Shown: positions 4,325-36,542 of the stretch, in pieces
Layout of the letters: each line of letters starts with the position of its first letter
How positions within the stretch are numbered: position 1 is the stretch's first letter
NCBI GenBank assembly: GCA_902775555.1
Contig: CACYMQ010000038.1
Location: 1-42,731, forward strand
Length of the DNA stretch: 42,731 nt
Source of the DNA: an uncultured Lachnospiraceae bacterium
Lineage (GTDB): Bacteria; Bacillota; Clostridia; Lachnospirales; Lachnospiraceae
Direction: 5' to 3'
Made by a program: the position numbers and the translations under genes
Notes under the pieces: model-generated
What the model was told of the DNA's origin: nothing
The model's input: only the letters and a program-made list of their open reading frames with translations
Databases searched by the model: none

Positions 4325-4332
4325 CCCACCAT

Positions 4333-4419
4333 GTCATCCTGAGCGGGCGCACGCGTGCCGGTGGCACGCGGTTTGTGCGCCGAGTATCGACCAAGCGGCA
4401 GCGCGAAGCGAAGGATCTT
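4333..4419 (+). repeat. Dispersed palindromic repeat, long form (copy 1)
   Basis: Starts GTCATCCTGAGC and ends GCGAAGCGAAGGATCTT, the two halves of a short palindromic element. Between them sits an insert whose outer GGCGCAC/GTGCGCC and inner GCGTGCC/GGCACGC arms form a 14-bp stem, followed by GAGTATCGACCAAGCGGCAG. The same long form recurs near 35.74 kb, and its 3' half near 15.11 kb. Confidence 0.85.
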
Positions 4420-4429
4420 AACAAAACGA

Positions 4430-9124: not shown

Positions 9125-9156
9125 CGAGAAGAGACGGAGTGATACCCGGACATGGT

Positions 9157-9432
9157 AAAGATCCTTCGTCGCTACGCTCCTCAGGATGACATGCGGATGT
9201 CATTCTGAGCGAAGCTGATGTCATTCTGAGCGAAGCGAAGAATCTTTCGATGAACGAACGGGACGGTCCCGGAATCTGCAGAAGGTGGCAACTGATCGTT
9301 GCAGTCTGCGGATCCCGGGACCGTCCCCTTAATTATGTCATTCTGAGCGAAGCGAAGAATCTTTCCCTAAAGATCCTTCGTCGCTACGCTCCTCAGGATG
9401 ACATGCGGGTGTCATTCTGAGCAAGGCTGGTG
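9157..9432. repeat. Nested array of short palindromic repeats
   Basis: This fills most of the gap between the convergent map and HD-GYP genes. AAAGATCCTTCGTCGCTACG through TCAGGATGACATGCGG occurs twice (from 9157 and from 9369), each followed by GTCATTCTGAGC. Inside these, ATGTCATTCTGAGCGAAGCG running to AATCTTTC occurs as a direct repeat (near 9219 and 9336) on either side of a long hairpin. The arms are inverted relative to each other, as in composite REP-like elements. Confidence 0.85.
9260..9327. repeat. 68-bp imperfect hairpin inside the repeat array
   Basis: GGGACGGTCCCGG and the following ten bases pair with the 3' arm ending CCCGGGACCGTCCC, giving about 23 bp with one mismatch and one wobble. 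A second small hairpin GCAAC-TGATC-GTTGC sits at the tip. The unit is flanked by direct copies of the short repeat. It looks like a separate miniature element inserted into the array; the run CCCCTTAATT gives it little terminator character. Confidence 0.7.
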
Positions 9433-12333: not shown

Positions 12334-12416
12334 GATCCCTCGAAAAAGATCCTTCGCTTCGCTCAGGATGACAGGGCTGCGCCAGGATGACAGGGCTGCG
12401 CCAGGATGACAGGTAG
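12332..12416. repeat. Short palindromic repeat (inverted form) with a 19-bp tandem repeat
   Basis: AAGATCCTTCGCTTCGCTC with AGGATGAC is the inverted form of the dispersed element. Its end is amplified: AGGATGACAGGGCTGCGCC occurs twice in tandem (12365-12383 and 12384-12402) with a third partial copy. It lies between the polymerase and its YolD-like partner. Confidence 0.85.
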
Positions 12417-31978: not shown

Positions 31979-34439
31979 AATGAATAAGGCTGAAAAGAAG
32001 GCGGCAAAGGAAGAGCGAAAGAGGATCCGCATTTCCGCGTGGAGAGACGAGGATACCCGTGAGCTTCCCCTCTGTAAGGGCGTCACCATCGACGAGTCCG
32101 TTTACCAGATCTCGGAGAACCGGTACTGGACCCTGCTCATCAAGGGCATCGTGGTATACCTTATAACTGCGGGCGGTTTCGGGAGTTATCTCACCATGAT
32201 GGAGATCCCTTTTTCGGAGCTGATCTTTCACACTGTGATCCTGGTCACTGCCATACTCTGTGCGTGTCTCTATCACAGTTGGAAATCGGAGAACCTGGGG
32301 TATCTGATCTTCTTTACCCTGTACGCAGCGATGCTGTTCCTGTTCCGGGACTATATCAACAGTGGTTTCTACGCCATCGTCAATGAGACAAATGAATGGA
32401 TCTCCGCCTATTTCAAGACGGAAGGAACCCAGCATTACAACGAACGGATCGCCAACCGGTATGCGGCCGTAACGGTAGCGGTAACCCTGATCGGTATCGC
32501 GGTCAACATCCTGCTCAATAACTATATCCTACGCCGTGCCCGTTATATGATCGCGGCAGGGATGGGAGTGACCCTGAACCTGGTGGGGCTCTACATGAAT
32601 AAGGAACCCTCACTGATGTATTCCCTGATGCTCATCGCCGGTCTTTGCATGACCTATGTGCTGAAATGCGGAAGGCATTTTTACCTGAGCCGGAATGATC
32701 ATATCTTCAAGCGGAAGAAATGGGGACTGTCCTACGGCCATGATCAGAAATCGCTTCGTCAGGGCATGATCCTTGTCCTGCTGCTGGTGCTGATCATCGC
32801 GAATGTGGTGAACATGATCCGTCCCCGTGACCAGTACATTTTCTATCGCGAGGACAGCTCGCTGAAGATCACCACCAAGGATCAGATCCAGAATCTGATG
32901 ATCCTCGGACTTGCAGGCTTCTGGAACTGGTACCCGAACAACGGCGGTCTTGCCAGCGGACAACTGGGGGGCGTGTCCGATATCCGTCTGGACTATCAGC
33001 CGGACCTGAATATCACATTTACGCCCTATGGTTATGAAACCGTATATGTAAAGAATCTGATCGGAAGAGACTATATCCCGTATGAAAACTACTGGGTTCA
33101 GCCGGAGAATTACGAGGATCCGGAGGAAGAAAACCTGTATGAGACAGAGGCACTGAAAAAGGCCTTTGAGGAGGGGAAGGAAGGATCGGCCAAAGGCACC
33201 ATGATCCTGAGGAATGTAGGAGCACTTGCCCAGACCTATCATCCCTATTATACGGAAATGGAACCCGGTCCGCTCTGGCAGAAAAAGGATCAGACCTTTG
33301 AGTATTATCCGCTGCTGAACGAAGACCTTCTGGTGCAGGAATCAAGAAAACCTGACGAGGGATATCTGGTGGTGCCGGAGGAGAACCGGCATGCGGTCAA
33401 TGATCTGGTATTTGAAGCGGGCCTCTCCCAAAAGGATGATCCGGAGCTGACGGTACAGAAGCTGGCTGCCTATTACCAGAGGGAGATCCCGTATACCATA
33501 CGTCCGGGGGCGACTCCGAGACGGGACGACTTCGTGAATTTCTTCCTGACAAGCAACAGGAAAGGCTACTGCGCACATTTTGCCAGTGCAGCGGTACTGG
33601 CCTTCCGTTCGGTGGGGATCCCTGCCAGATACTGTGAGGGCTATGCCGTATCCTATGACCAGATCTTGTCAAGAGGTGAACTGGTAGAAGGCGAAGAGAA
33701 TAATTATGACAAATATTACAGCGGATACAGTGCCCTCGGGCGGACGGCACTGGTCAGTGTAAATGCCACGGATGCAAATGCCCATGCATGGGTGGAGATC
33801 TACGTGGACAAGAAGGGCTGGGTGATCGCGGAGGTGACCCCGTCTTCTTCACTGGATGAAGATGAGGATTTCGGCTCCTTCTGGGAGAACTTCAACGGAC
33901 TCTTCGGAGACGGGGATGTAGACAATGCTGCAAACTACGATGGTGGCGGCGGCTTCCGGATCTCCATCGATGACGGCGTCATGAAAGTGATCGCCTTCGT
34001 GCTGATCGGTCTTCTGGTACTTGCGGCCATGATCTTCATGGGATTCCGGCTGGCACCGGTATTCCGTTACCACAGAGATTACAGGAACGGAAACTGGTCC
34101 GATAAACTGGTTCTCTATTACAGCAGAGCGATGCGGCGAAGAAAGAAAGACAAAGAACTGCGATCTATGGTAAACTATAGAGAGCAGATGGAATGTCTGT
34201 ATGACCGGAGGCGGGCGGCAGATGTTCCGGATACGGAGCTGATGACCTATACCAAGCCTGCGTCCGTGGACGGACGAAGAGTGGATTCGCCGGAAATGGA
34301 AGAACTGCTCAAAACCCTGGAACAGGCAGGCTTCTCAAAACAGGAGATAGGCGAGGATACATTTAACATATCAAAACAGCGGCTGGACGAGCTTCTGAAG
34401 AAGGTGAGTCAGAAAGGAGTTTTGAAGGATGAGAAGTGA
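31953..34439 (+). CDS. Large membrane protein with transglutaminase-like domain (TgpA type)
   Basis: 828 residues. At least six helices lie in the N-terminal third (about 60-290), followed by a large extracellular region, a transglutaminase-like core (about 490-640), a final helix (about 660-683) and a cytoplasmic charged tail. Catalytic Cys540 sits in KGYCAHFASA and His611 in NAHAWVEIY; the third residue is Glu627 in AEVTPSS, where most relatives have Asp (DPTP). Such proteins are thought to act as envelope cysteine proteases or cross-linking enzymes; the substrate is unknown. A second start at 31980, directly after the DUF58 stop and preceded by AGGA, is equally possible and would shorten the protein by nine residues. 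Confidence 0.88.
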   Translation: MPKLSNRTKMNKAEKKAAKEERKRIRISAWRDEDTRELPLCKGVTIDESVYQISENRYWTLLIKGIVVYLITAGGFGSYLTMMEIPFSELIFHTVILVTAILCACLYHSWKSENLGYLIFFTLYAAMLFLFRDYINSGFYAIVNETNEWISAYFKTEGTQHYNERIANRYAAVTVAVTLIGIAVNILLNNYILRRARYMIAAGMGVTLNLVGLYMNKEPSLMYSLMLIAGLCMTYVLKCGRHFYLSRNDHIFKRKKWGLSYGHDQKSLRQGMILVLLLVLIIANVVNMIRPRDQYIFYREDSSLKITTKDQIQNLMILGLAGFWNWYPNNGGLASGQLGGVSDIRLDYQPDLNITFTPYGYETVYVKNLIGRDYIPYENYWVQPENYEDPEEENLYETEALKKAFEEGKEGSAKGTMILRNVGALAQTYHPYYTEMEPGPLWQKKDQTFEYYPLLNEDLLVQESRKPDEGYLVVPEENRHAVNDLVFEAGLSQKDDPELTVQKLAAYYQREIPYTIRPGATPRRDDFVNFFLTSNRKGYCAHFASAAVLAFRSVGIPARYCEGYAVSYDQILSRGELVEGEENNYDKYYSGYSALGRTALVSVNATDANAHAWVEIYVDKKGWVIAEVTPSSSLDEDEDFGSFWENFNGLFGDGDVDNAANYDGGGGFRISIDDGVMKVIAFVLIGLLVLAAMIFMGFRLAPVFRYHRDYRNGNWSDKLVLYYSRAMRRRKKDKELRSMVNYREQMECLYDRRRAADVPDTELMTYTKPASVDGRRVDSPEMEELLKTLEQAGFSKQEIGEDTFNISKQRLDELLKKVSQKGVLKDEK

Positions 34440-35067
34440 GCGATCCGAAAGAGCGGAGCGTCGGAGGATATGGTGGGCAGGCCTGAACCAGATGACCCGT
34501 ACCATCATACTGATCGCGGTAGCGGTGGTACTGATCATGGGAGGTGTATGGCTGAAGACCTTCCTGTTCGGAAAGGGCGAACCGAAGATCACGACGGACT
34601 ACATAACGGGAAAGCTGGAGGTTGCCAGTGAACTGACCACGGCTGAGCTGACCTATACCGGCCTGGTGAAATTCGAAGACGGTTCCATTCCCTTTCTGAC
34701 GAAGAAGGGATTTACCATGAAATATACCGCTACGGTCAAAGCCGGGATCGATTTCTCCAAGATCGAAGTGGATGTAAACAGCAAGACCGTGGTGGTTACG
34801 ATCCCGGAGACGGAGATCCAGTCCGTAAATGTGGATTCGAATTCCATTGACTTTTATGATGAGAGCCATGCACTGTTCAACTGGAGCAGTAAGGACGATG
34901 TGACGACTGCGATCCAGGCAGCAGAGAATGATGTGTCGCAGAATGCGGATACGGAATCCCTGAAGACCAAGTCCTCCGAACAGACGGAGAAACTGGTCCG
35001 CGGACTGCTGGAGGATGTCATCGGAGACAGAGAATTGGTGATCAAACGCAAGGCTGCGACACAATGA
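34429..35067 (+). CDS. DUF4230 domain membrane-anchored protein
   Basis: 212 residues: a very basic N-terminus (RSERSERAERRR), one helix (about 23-43), then an extracellular domain of mixed strands and helices with FTMKYTATVKAGIDFSKI and VVVTIPETEIQSV, as in DUF4230 proteins. The function of the family is unknown. It overlaps the transglutaminase gene by 11 bp and is the last gene of the second MoxR operon; no terminator is evident directly after it, and the promoter of the candidate RNA begins 62 bp downstream. Confidence 0.82.
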   Translation: MRSERSERAERRRIWWAGLNQMTRTIILIAVAVVLIMGGVWLKTFLFGKGEPKITTDYITGKLEVASELTTAELTYTGLVKFEDGSIPFLTKKGFTMKYTATVKAGIDFSKIEVDVNSKTVVVTIPETEIQSVNVDSNSIDFYDESHALFNWSSKDDVTTAIQAAENDVSQNADTESLKTKSSEQTEKLVRGLLEDVIGDRELVIKRKAATQ

Positions 35068-35129
35068 CGGAACTGTCTGACAATTTAGACAATTTCGGAT
35101 AAATAATTCGAAAAATGTTCATTTTCATA

Positions 35130-35158
35130 TTGACATGTCGCGCAAATTAGACTATAAT
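35130..35158 (+). promoter_or_regulatory. Full-consensus sigma-A promoter for a non-coding region
   Basis: TTGACA, 17 nt, TATAAT: both hexamers match the consensus exactly at ideal spacing, the strongest promoter seen in the window. The predicted start is about 35165. The 62 bp before it are AT-rich with repeated CAATTTAGACAATTT-like segments; no gene follows for almost 800 bp. Confidence 0.9.
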
Positions 35159-35164
35159 GAATTT

Positions 35165-35684
35165 ACACTTAAGTAGAAGTTATCACTGCAGCGACACTGC
35201 AGTTTCTACCCCGATGGTGCGGGGTAAATATATAAGGAAAGGACGGTAGATGGGAAGCCGGAACGGTTTCGGATGCAGTCTTCGGTGGCCGGAGATGGAG
35301 AAAGAGGCTTACATTTTCCAAAGAAATATTTATATAGATTAGGATCGGAAAGCCAATCCGGAACATTCTTCCAGCGAAACAGAGAATAGAATGCATAAGA
35401 TCTATGATCGCAACCTGAAGATGTGGCAACCTGATCATACCTGTTTGAACGTCCTGGAAACCCGGGAGATACAGACGTCATAGAATGGAAATGCTGTATA
35501 GATGTATCATGTAGAAACAGCAGAAGGCGTGATTGATATCACAAGTGGTACGGGAACGTAAGGTAAGGGTTGAACGTGATGAATAGGCGGACCTGCCCGT
35601 TGGCGTAGGCCTGGTGGGAACGCAGAACAACTTCATATGATTTTTCACGGAGGGCTCCACCCGAGATGGATGCCCTCCGTTTTT
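35165..35684 (+). ncRNA. Candidate large structured non-coding RNA, class not identified
   Basis: About 520 nt from a perfect promoter to a strong intrinsic terminator, with no plus-strand reading frame beyond about 31 codons. Local helices follow one another: GTAGAA/TTCTAC enclosing CTGCAG/CTGCAG (35173-35209); CCCCG/CGGGG (35209-35224); GGAGAA/TTTTCC (35297-35319); GGATCGG/CCAATCC (35342-35359); CATTCT/AGAATG (35364-35393); TATGATC/GATCATA (35403-35439, enclosing a repeated GCAACCTGA); TCCTGG/CCGGGA (35452-35467); TGCTGT/ACAGCA (35492-35522); GTGAT/ATCAC (35529-35542); and CCTGCC/GGC..AGG (35592-35609). GAAGTT near the 5' end (35176-35181) can pair with AACTTC near the 3' end (35629-35634). 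It does not look like RNase P, tmRNA, 6S or SRP RNA. OLE, GOLLD and ROOL are of similar size, but I cannot match them from memory. Confidence 0.7.
35647..35684. terminator. Strong terminator of the candidate RNA
   Basis: ACGGAGGGC/GCCCTCCGT (9 bp) plus TCCA/TGGA with one bulged base, loop CCCGAGA, then TTTT. A TTTTT run also precedes the stem, so on the other strand it has an A/T-rich flank but no gene to serve. Confidence 0.9.
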
Positions 35685-35718: not shown

Positions 35719-35878
35719 CATGTCATCCTTCCATGTCATCCTGAGCGGGCGCACGCGTGCCGGTGGCACGCAGTTCGTGCGCCGAGTATCGACCAAGCGG
35801 CAGCGCGACGCGAAGGATCTTTACCGGAAGGATCTTTACCGATAAGCTTCCTCGTCGCTATGCGCCTCGGAATGACAA
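35719..35878 (+). repeat. Dispersed palindromic repeat, long form (copy) plus inverted unit
   Basis: Two CCTTCCATGTCAT steps lead into the long form GTCATCCTGAGCGGGCGCAC... that matches the copy at 4333-4419 with few changes (GCAGTTCG for GCGGTTTG). GGATCTTTACCG then repeats, followed by an inverted-type unit CTCGTCGCTATGCGCCTCGG and AATGACA. The region lies between the candidate RNA and the VanZ-like gene. A weak -10 (TACAAT, near 35905) may start the latter. Confidence 0.85.
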
Positions 35879-35945: not shown

Positions 35946-36461
35946 ATGGAAGCAGACGTAAAAGCAGAAAAGAAAAAAACAGTCTTTATTATATTTCGTA
36001 TCCTGCTCATTCTCTGGATGATCGTCATCTTCCTTTTTTCTGCAGCAGACGGAAATGAATCATCCGAAACCAGCGGATGGGTCGGAAGGATGATCGGATC
36101 ATTCCTTCATTCCGATTTCGAGGAGTGGACGGAGGAAGAACAGAAGGCATACGCACAGAAGATTGAGTATCCCATAAGAAAAGCAGCCCATGCAACGGAA
36201 TACGCCGTGCTTGCGCTGCTGTTCTTTGGTGCGATCGATCTGAAGGGCAGAAAGAGATATCTATGCGCCTGGGCAGGTGCGGCGCTCTACGCCTGTACCG
36301 ACGAATTACACCAGCTCTTTGTCCCGGGGCGGGCCGGAAGCGTGATCGATGTCTGTATAGACAGCTCCGGAGCGCTGGTGGGTCTGCTCATCCTGTGGGG
36401 GATCCTTTCGCTCCGCCGCAGGCTCCGTGCTAAATCATCCGAAGCACCCGTGTCATCCTGA
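35946..36461 (+). CDS. VanZ-like family membrane protein
   Basis: 171 residues with four hydrophobic helices (about 14-32, 75-95, 102-115 and 134-150). The VanZ marks are present: FLFSAADG after the first helix, RKAAHATEYAVLALL, and CTDELHQLFVPGRAGSVIDV, then DSSGALVG. VanZ confers low-level teicoplanin resistance by an unknown mechanism, but most VanZ-like proteins have no known role in resistance. TAGGAA precedes the ATG. The stop codon and last residues (APVSS) are encoded by the start of a dispersed repeat copy, so the C-terminus may have been set by repeat insertion. Confidence 0.86.
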   Translation: MEADVKAEKKKTVFIIFRILLILWMIVIFLFSAADGNESSETSGWVGRMIGSFLHSDFEEWTEEEQKAYAQKIEYPIRKAAHATEYAVLALLFFGAIDLKGRKRYLCAWAGAALYACTDELHQLFVPGRAGSVIDVCIDSSGALVGLLILWGILSLRRRLRAKSSEAPVSS

Positions 36462-36542
36462 GCAAAGCGAAGGATCTTTACCGATAAGATTCCTCGTCGC
36501 TATGCGCCTCGGAATGACAAGCATGTGTCATCCTGAGCGGTA
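36451..36542 (+). repeat. Dispersed palindromic repeat, short form plus inverted unit
   Basis: GTCATCCTGAGCAAAGCGAA through GGATCTTTACCGATAAGATT, then TCCTCGTCGCTATGCGCCTC and GGAATGACA, and a second partial GTCATCCTGAGCGG. The first TGA inside GTCATCCTGAGC ends the VanZ-like gene. The remnant at the other side abuts the stop of the DUF6062 gene. Confidence 0.85.

What the first reader, a model, noticed from the sequence alone, without database searches (positions are those of the whole stretch)
35130..35684. Candidate large structured non-coding RNA under a perfect promoter
A consensus TTGACA-17-TATAAT promoter drives about 520 nt that contain no convincing gene, at least ten local hairpins and possible 5'-3' pairing, and end in a 13-bp terminator. 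Independent transcription units of this size without a protein are rare and usually belong to ornate RNA classes such as OLE, GOLLD or ROOL. I could not match it to any of them. It sits right after a MoxR/transglutaminase/DUF4230 operon.
Basis: partly seen in the sequence, partly recalled or inferred. Interest (0 to 1): 0.85.

Follow-up and report, generated by a model that had tools for sequence, protein, structure and literature searches.

The report
Unknown large structured bacterial RNA
A group of related gut bacteria carries a roughly 360 to 630 letter RNA gene that seems to make no protein, folds into a conserved shape and matches no catalogued RNA, which suggests an RNA family whose job is still unknown.

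Summary
The observation mostly holds. A perfect TTGACA-17-TATAAT promoter (35130-35158) and a 13-pair terminator (35648-35684) bracket about 520 nt without a conserved gene-like frame or an Rfam match. Relatives show that it is a gene. Of 61 genomes of the genus, 11 carry the RNA core, one carries its first ~150 nt up to a contig end, and one carries only the promoter at a contig end. These 13 are exactly the genomes whose DUF4230 neighbour is at least 63% identical. The other 48 gave no match, and in samples of 397 family and 391 class genomes only the window's own matched. Helices are kept while sequence changes; one 29-nt hairpin is nearly invariant. Length varies from 359 to 633 nt, and two of eight class I RNAs lack a whole domain. 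The promoter is unusually conserved, with a palindrome 54-55 bp upstream of the -35. The gene follows DUF4230 throughout, but in two species the next gene downstream differs, so a leader is unlikely. The proposed 5'-3' pairing is not supported. Most likely: a trans-acting structural RNA, comparable in kind but not related to OLE or ROOL. Transcription and function are inferred.

The parts
35075..35083 (+). GTCWGACAA element, palindromic GTC-W-GAC, 55 bp upstream of the -35 (54-55 bp in relatives); probable regulator site
   Evidence: Seen upstream of all 12 RNA promoters read, one of them (G024) as GACTGACAA. Pattern GTCWGACAA-N38..58-TTGACATG: 12 of 61 genomes, 11 of them at this locus, reversed control 0 of 61.
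35130..35158 (+). Promoter TTGACA-N17-TATAAT; the -35 overlaps the palindrome GACATGTC and the spacer is conserved (TGTCRNRCAAW)
   Evidence: 12/12 here. Of 12 promoters read, 9 have TATAAT and 11 have TTGACA. Single match of the promoter pattern in own genome.
35165..35684 (+). The RNA gene, about 520 nt, ends inferred from promoter and terminator
35185..35203 (+). Helix P1 (hairpin)
   Evidence: 8 class I sequences 95% paired, 0 of 1000 shuffles as high; double changes not beyond shuffles (306 of 1000).
35207..35226 (+). Helix P2 (hairpin UACCCC/GGGGUA), followed by AAAUA and a purine tract
   Evidence: Register shifts in the alignment lower it to 75% paired; UACCCC/GGGGUA versus UGCCUC/GAGGCA was read by eye.
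35245..35259 (+). P3 arm, 5' strand (GGUA...GCC)
   Evidence: Pairs with 35425-35441; GGUA/UACC nearly invariant, so weak evidence by itself.
35260..35424 (+). Optional domain with helices OD1 (35266-35274 with 35356-35364) and OD2 (35278-35296)
   Evidence: Present in 6 of 8 class I RNAs, missing in G002 and G036.
35425..35441 (+). P3 arm, 3' strand (GGC...UACC)
35449..35559 (+). Core arm P4 with helices Pb (35468-35472 / 35536-35540) and Pc (35475-35479 / 35526-35530)
   Evidence: Model R1; covariation over 11 RNAs. Class II has AAGU/ACUU where class I has mostly CGU/ACG at the P4 base, read by eye.
35493..35521 (+). P5, nearly invariant 29-nt hairpin GCUGUAUAGAnnnnAUCAUGUAGAAACAGC (class I form)
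   Evidence: Stem identical in 11 of 11; used for the collection scan.
35590..35620 (+). P6 hairpin (CUGCC...GGUGG)
   Evidence: True partners pair at 81 of 88 positions against 70.5 for swapped partners, 0 of 5000 permutations.
35627..35640 (+). Conserved segment ACAACUUCAUAAGA (window: ACAACUUCAUAUGA), perhaps single-stranded
   Evidence: Class I alignment A5; no supported 5' partner.
35648..35684 (+). Intrinsic terminator; stem covaries while loop CCCGAGA is kept in 10 of 11
34429..35067 (+). DUF4230 protein gene, upstream neighbour in every carrier (not part of the RNA)
   Evidence: PF14014, E = 1.1e-27; genus search.
35946..36461 (+). VanZ-like membrane protein gene, usual but not invariant downstream neighbour (not part of the RNA)
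   Evidence: PF04892; found downstream in 9 of the 11 genomes with a complete RNA, window included, not in G019 and G058.

Best explanation
This is an independent gene for a large structured non-coding RNA, inherited vertically by one clade of Lachnospiraceae that lives largely in the rumen. Shown by sequence comparison: a strong, very conserved promoter, a terminator, conserved helices with compensating changes, no frame common to the relatives, one copy at a fixed chromosomal place, and presence in every member of the clade whose assembly lets it be checked. Inferred: it is transcribed strongly and controlled by a dedicated regulator that binds the two palindromes. The RNA then acts in trans as a folded particle. 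The nearly invariant P5 hairpin, the P4 core and the conserved ACAACUUCAUAAGA segment would be its binding surface for a protein or another RNA, and the optional domain a peripheral attachment that can be lost.
For: Homologues. Core model R1 in 11 of 61 genus genomes; the remaining two of the 13 genomes with DUF4230 at >=63% identity have the RNA's first ~150 nt (G010) or its promoter (G018) at a contig end. Helices in class I: 89 pairs, 92.8% of 665 cells paired, 19 pairs with double changes versus 10.3 in shuffles, 0 of 1000; sliding the partners drops paired cells from 617 to 220-286. Core over 11 RNAs: 5 double-change pairs versus 0.7, reached by 1 of 500 shuffles. The three class II species form one branch of the DUF4230 tree, support 96/92. 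A different gene lies downstream in 2 of 11. No shared frame.
Against: No transcript or partner was seen. Seven of the 19 double-change pairs are in the terminator, and taken one by one only the terminator helix exceeds shuffles for double changes. Helices P3a, P3c, OD2, OD3, P4b, P4c, Pc and P5 have no double change within class I. The helices were proposed from the same alignment on which they were counted. Only 11 complete sequences exist here. Two short frames share a start codon in 6 of 11 RNAs. The DUF4230 tree does not prove one origin: the branch with all carriers is open (90/80) and holds three non-carriers. The regulator is a guess from two palindromes. Trans action is inferred mainly from the RNA having its own terminator and from the different downstream gene in two species.
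Confidence: 0.55

Rival explanations
1. A base-pairing regulatory RNA: the conserved terminator loop CCCGAGA (or the P5 loop) is a seed that pairs with target messages, and the rest is a stabilising scaffold.
For: The terminator loop is identical in 10 of 11 RNAs while its stem changes by compensation. A C-rich loop as seed is recalled from other Gram-positive small RNAs and was not tested here.
Against: A long, multi-helix fold with an invariant internal core is more than a seed RNA needs. G035 has another loop (GAUUGAA).
Confidence: 0.2
2. An RNA-only homo-oligomer like OLE, ROOL or GOLLD, held together by loop-loop and A-minor contacts.
For: Similar size, conserved unpaired stretches and a length-variable domain, as reported for the linkers of ROOL and GOLLD (passages of PMC12286853).
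Against: No match to any Rfam family. The one loop contact scanned for, of the terminator loop, showed no covarying partner: the optional-domain strand GUUUCGG can pair with it, but RNAs without that domain keep the loop.
Confidence: 0.12
3. A cis-acting leader or attenuator for the VanZ-like gene: P6 strand GGUGG could switch to the terminator's 5' strand as an antiterminator.
For: The strand can pair at 5-8 of 8 positions with the terminator in 10 of 11 RNAs. The VanZ-like gene follows in 9 of 11.
Against: The alternative pairing does not covary: 66 pairs versus 64.9 for swapped partners, 1909 of 5000 permutations as high. The next gene differs in G019 and G058. A script found the VanZ start in 5 of 11 genomes; in four of these a TATAAT-like box lies just before the start codon, so the gene probably has its own promoter.
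Confidence: 0.05
4. A messenger, or a dual-function RNA, for a small protein.
For: Two plus-strand frames start at the same ATG in the six class I RNAs that have the optional domain: one of 24-31 aa (window start 35391) and one of 18-94 aa (window start 35273). Frames of up to 98 aa occur in single relatives.
Against: The first frame runs through the conserved core in one phase in three RNAs and in another phase in the other three; the second varies fivefold in length; neither has a ribosome-binding site in the 20 bases before it by eye, and both are missing in the five other RNAs. Minus-strand frames are broken or shifted in most relatives.
Confidence: 0.06

Closest known systems
ROOL and GOLLD RNAs
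   Same: Large (hundreds of nt), complex fold, no protein, function unknown; ROOL is also rumen-derived (passages).
   Different: No Rfam match. ROOL and GOLLD lie in phages and prophages, often near tRNA islands (passages); this one has a fixed chromosomal place, no tRNA in the window, and no match in phage, plasmid or viral collections.
OLE RNA
   Same: About 600 nt in OLE, Gram-positive anaerobes, conserved nucleotides in an intricate fold (abstract starts in the listing).
   Different: No Rfam match; OLE is found in many Gram-positive species (listing), this RNA was seen in one clade. OLE's protein partners were not looked for.
raiA RNA
   Same: A non-coding RNA of unknown function in Firmicutes (recalled).
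   Different: No match of model RF03072 (209 positions) in 61 genus genomes, though the control genomes were silent too.
6S RNA and RNase P RNA
   Same: Housekeeping-like: single copy, chromosomal, kept by all checkable members of the clade.
   Different: The genome has ordinary copies of both elsewhere, and this place matches neither model.

Membership tests
ROOL / GOLLD / OLE (that these are in the Rfam library is recalled) | Match to the family covariance model | tested here: not met
   No match at gathering score, none of these with E up to 10 in 701 bases, none with E up to 1 in 10 related loci.
ROOL / GOLLD | Phage or prophage location, often near tRNA genes | tested here: not met
   0 tRNAs in the window; 0 matches in viral contigs, phages and plasmids; place next to DUF4230 in all carriers.
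ROOL / GOLLD / OLE | Homo-oligomer formation | not testable with these tools
   Needs purified RNA; only the terminator loop was scanned for a covarying contact, without success.
raiA RNA | Match to RF03072 | tested here: inconclusive
   0 of 61 genus genomes, but the control search found nothing in 14 known genomes; no Rfam match of any kind in the window.
6S RNA | Match to RF00013 | tested here: not met
   No match at this place; ordinary 6S at G000:C57, E = 2.2e-11.
RNase P RNA | Match to RF00010 | tested here: not met
   No match at this place; ordinary copy at G000:C33, E = 1.2e-105.
Independent large structured ncRNA (general kind) | Own promoter and terminator | tested here: met
   sequence only, no transcript.
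Independent large structured ncRNA (general kind) | Base pairs kept through compensating changes | tested here: met
   R-scape not available.
Independent large structured ncRNA (general kind) | No conserved protein frame | tested here: met
   No frame shared by the 11 RNAs; two short frames share only a start codon in 6 of 11.
CsrA-sponge RNA (CsrB type) | Excess of GGA motifs | tested here: not met
   No RNA of 11 exceeds shuffles at 5%; the nearest, G060, is reached by 14 of 200.
cis-acting attenuator | Alternative pairing that disrupts the terminator, supported by covariation | tested here: not met
   66 versus 64.9 pairs for swapped partners.

The most novel reading that the evidence does not exclude
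A previously undescribed class of ornate RNA, unrelated to OLE, ROOL or GOLLD, that arose and became fixed within one clade of a bacterial genus, works as an RNA particle (alone or with protein), and is switched by its own dedicated regulator. It would be a case in which a large, complex RNA machine appeared recently enough for its origin and the gain and loss of its domains to be followed species by species.
Probability: 0.3. Interest if true: 0.85.

Novelty: new variant of a known kind. Interest (0 to 1): 0.62.

Why it matters
Few large structured bacterial RNAs without known function have been described, and the best known are widespread or carried by phages (recall, and passages). This one was found, as far as searched, only in 13 species of a single genus (two of them cut off by contig ends), sits at one chromosomal place, and varies in domain content between close relatives. 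One carrier, Lachnospiraceae bacterium AC2029, is a named taxon with a single-contig genome and one of the shortest forms (373 nt), which would make biochemical work practical. It would allow a test of how a large RNA fold arises and what it is kept for.

Tried and rejected
Coding: no frame is shared by the 11 RNAs; two short frames that keep a start codon in 6 of 11 were looked at again and judged unlikely. Known RNA families: only sub-threshold matches, to a CRISPR repeat family, a plant-virus pseudoknot, human and microRNA families and, outside the RNA, Clostridiales-1. Diverged 6S or RNase P: rejected, ordinary copies elsewhere. raiA: 0 of 61, but the control was silent. Antiterminator switch between P6 and the terminator: rejected for lack of covariation. 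Contact of the terminator loop with the optional domain: possible in 6 of 6 RNAs that have the domain, but the loop is also kept in those without it, so left unexplained. 5'-3' pairing: not supported in the 7 of 11 RNAs that the pattern caught. CsrA sponge: no GGA excess. Mobile element: no match in 50,697 phage and 72,556 plasmid records or, for the core pattern, in viral contigs. Wider distribution: R1 in 1 of 299 and R2 in 1 of 397 family genomes, R2 in 1 of 391 class genomes, each time only the window's own genome. These samples overlap, used strict filters and scored about a dozen candidates a genome, so remote relatives could be missed. Hidden RNA in the same slot of non-carriers: 15 of the 17 fetched loci were read, 12 show a small acidic membrane-protein gene (one cut by the contig end) and 3 show other genes; R1 found none in 14 such loci. 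Pattern scan of genome contigs gave 11 hits, 10 being carriers and one a Vibrio contig taken as chance. Literature: six full-text searches listed no paper describing this RNA; most subscription journals and all supplements were out of reach. Papers: PMC12286853, PMC8040213 and PMC11109978 seen as passages; the others as listings with the start of the abstract.

Full report
What was checked. The stretch 35130-35684 was read directly. The promoter is a perfect consensus, TTGACA with a 17-nt spacer and TATAAT. From the expected start at 35165 to the end of the terminator's U tract at 35684 is 520 nt. The fold is more stable than dinucleotide shuffles (z = -2.41, 0 of 100). With the terminator removed, 11 of 11 RNAs still have negative z-scores, from -0.69 to -3.62. 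The upstream genes are a TPR protein, a MoxR-type AAA ATPase, DUF58, transglutaminase and DUF4230; the next gene downstream is VanZ-like.

Not a known RNA. cmscan of the whole window against Rfam 15 gave nothing at gathering score. A permissive scan of 701 bases gave three matches, all far below their cut-offs and all on the minus strand. The same scan of ten related loci gave four sub-threshold matches, none inside the RNA by their coordinates; the best, Clostridiales-1, lies just downstream of the RNA in L027. Ordinary 6S RNA (G000:C57) and RNase P RNA (G000:C33) are present elsewhere in the genome, so this is not a diverged copy of either.

Who has it. A BLASTN search found relatives in 11 of 99 related genomes, all in the same genus and counting the window's own. 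A covariance model of the core, R1, found 11 of 61 genus genomes. It added one diverged species, G034, that was not among the sequences it was built from (E = 2.7e-8), and it missed G010, whose contig ends about 150 nt into the RNA. G018's contig ends just after the promoter. A search with the neighbouring DUF4230 protein found it in 51 of 61 genus genomes; exactly 13 have it at 63% identity or more (the next is 51%), and these are the 11 carriers plus G010 and G018. In a tree of 30 DUF4230 proteins the 12 RNA carriers and G018 lie in one branch, but that branch is open (90/80) and also takes in three non-carriers on a long branch, so one origin is likely but not proven. Models R1 and R2 found no other carrier in overlapping samples of 299 and 397 family genomes and 391 class genomes. 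A pattern made from the P5 hairpin hit 11 contigs in genome contigs: ten carriers titled Lachnospiraceae, Eubacterium or Clostridiales, three of them titled from rumen or omasum and one being AC2029, and one Vibrio contig taken as chance. Phage, plasmid and viral collections gave nothing.

Same slot in non-carriers. Of 17 fetched loci from genus members without the RNA, 15 were read: 12 have a small acidic membrane protein gene after DUF4230 and 3 have other genes. R1 finds nothing convincing in 14 such loci; its only matches outside the carriers' RNAs were two chance-level ones, E = 1.4 in the window and 1.5 in L034. So the slot is not hiding a recognisable copy.

Anatomy. Two classes exist. 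Class I is the window, G002, G060, G037, G024, G016, G035 and G036; class II is G019, G058 and G034, which form one branch of the DUF4230 tree (96/92). Complete RNAs are 359 to 633 nt long. In class I the order is P1 and P2 hairpins, an A/G-rich linker, arm P3 whose far end carries an optional domain, the core arm P4 with Pb, Pc and hairpin P5, then P6, the conserved segment ACAACUUCAUAAGA, and the terminator. G002 and G036 lack the optional domain. G036 lies inside a branch whose other two members with complete RNAs, G016 and G035, have the domain, so at least that loss looks secondary.

Comparative support. On the sequence-only alignment of the eight class I RNAs, 89 pairs in 17 helices are 92.8% paired over 665 cells; 19 pairs show double changes against 10.3 in shuffles (0 of 1000), and sliding the partners by one or two columns lowers paired cells from 617 to 220-286. 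Seven of the 19 are in the terminator. Taken alone, only the terminator exceeds shuffling for double changes (9 of 1000); P1, P6a and the terminator exceed it for paired cells (0 of 1000 each), P3b, P6b and P2 less strongly (16, 24 and 42 of 1000). On the core of all 11 RNAs, 16 pairs are 97.2% paired, with 5 double-change pairs against 0.7 (1 of 500 shuffles) and 0-2 in slid versions. Helix Pb has four of the five. P6 partners pair better than swapped partners, 81 against 70.5, 0 of 5000 permutations. Helices P3a, P3c, OD2, OD3, P4b, P4c, Pc and P5 show no double change within class I and are neither supported nor refuted by that test. The helices were proposed from the same alignments, which favours them to some degree.

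Coding. No frame is shared by the 11 RNAs. On re-checking, two short plus-strand frames start at the same ATG in the six class I RNAs with the optional domain. One (24-31 aa) reads the conserved core in one phase in the window, G016 and G035 and in another in G060, G037 and G024; the other is 18 to 94 aa long. Neither is preceded by a ribosome-binding site by eye, and both are missing in the other five RNAs. I raised the small-protein rival from 0.04 to 0.06 for this.

Promoter. Besides the hexamers, the spacer is conserved (TGTC, then RCAAW, in all 12 promoters read) and a GTCWGACAA element sits 54-55 bp upstream, as GACTGACAA in one. Nine of the 12 have TATAAT and 11 have TTGACA. The exact combined pattern occurs in 12 of 61 genus genomes, 11 of them at this locus, with 0 for the reversed control; G024 and G058 miss it by one base each. 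The shorter promoter pattern has 17 matches in 15 genomes, 11 of them at this locus and one in the window's own genome; its reversed control has one match in 61 genomes. This points to a dedicated regulator, which is an inference.

Context. DUF4230 is the upstream neighbour in all 12 carriers that have RNA sequence. The VanZ-like gene follows in 9 of the 11 genomes with a complete RNA; in G019 another membrane-protein-like frame follows, and in G058 what looks like threonyl-tRNA synthetase, named from recall of its sequence. The start of VanZ was found by script in 5 of 11 genomes; in four a TATAAT-like box lies directly before the start codon, while in the window a TACAAT lies further upstream. 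The RNA is therefore more likely a trans-acting product than a leader.

Mechanism. The most likely reading is an RNA that works as a folded particle, probably with protein, whose most constrained surface is P5 with the P4 core. A seed-type regulator acting through the terminator loop CCCGAGA (10 of 11) is the main rival, and an RNA-only oligomer the next. None of these steps has been shown.

Literature. Passages of PMC12286853 describe ROOL and GOLLD as phage-borne, often near tRNA islands, and forming RNA cages. Candidate RNAs of the human microbiome set in PMC8040213 are 27-219 bases long (passage), shorter than this one. PMC11109978 calls the smtA motif a large RNA of unknown function (passage). 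Six searches gave no description of this RNA.

Noticed in passing
window 35734-35840 and 36451-36540, also 4332-4423, 9154-9422, 12342-12373: A dispersed repeat with TGTCATCCTGAGC and GCGAAGGATCTTTACC: 12 and 7 matches (1 and 2 mismatches allowed) against 0.14 and 0.01 expected. One copy lies between the RNA's terminator and the VanZ-like gene.
   Followed up: partly
L041-L057, after the DUF4230 gene: Genus members without the RNA mostly (12 of 15 loci read) carry a small membrane protein with an acidic tail in the same slot, often followed by what looks like a response regulator.
   Followed up: partly
window 35266-35272 and terminator loop 35660-35667: The optional-domain strand GUUUCGG is complementary to the terminator loop in 6 of 6 RNAs with the domain, yet RNAs without the domain keep the loop.
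   Followed up: partly
window 35391-35480 and 35273-35386: Two short frames keep their ATG in the six class I RNAs with the optional domain, though not their length or phase.
   Followed up: partly
L012, downstream of the RNA (G058): A threonyl-tRNA synthetase-like gene, not the VanZ-like gene, lies downstream of the RNA (name recalled from the sequence).
   Followed up: no
upstream of VanZ-like genes in L060, L068, L064, L027: TATAAT-like boxes lie only a few bases before the VanZ start codon, suggesting leaderless messages.
   Followed up: no
L027:1869-1982: Sub-threshold match to Clostridiales-1 RNA (30 bits, gathering 48) just downstream of the RNA's terminator.
   Followed up: no
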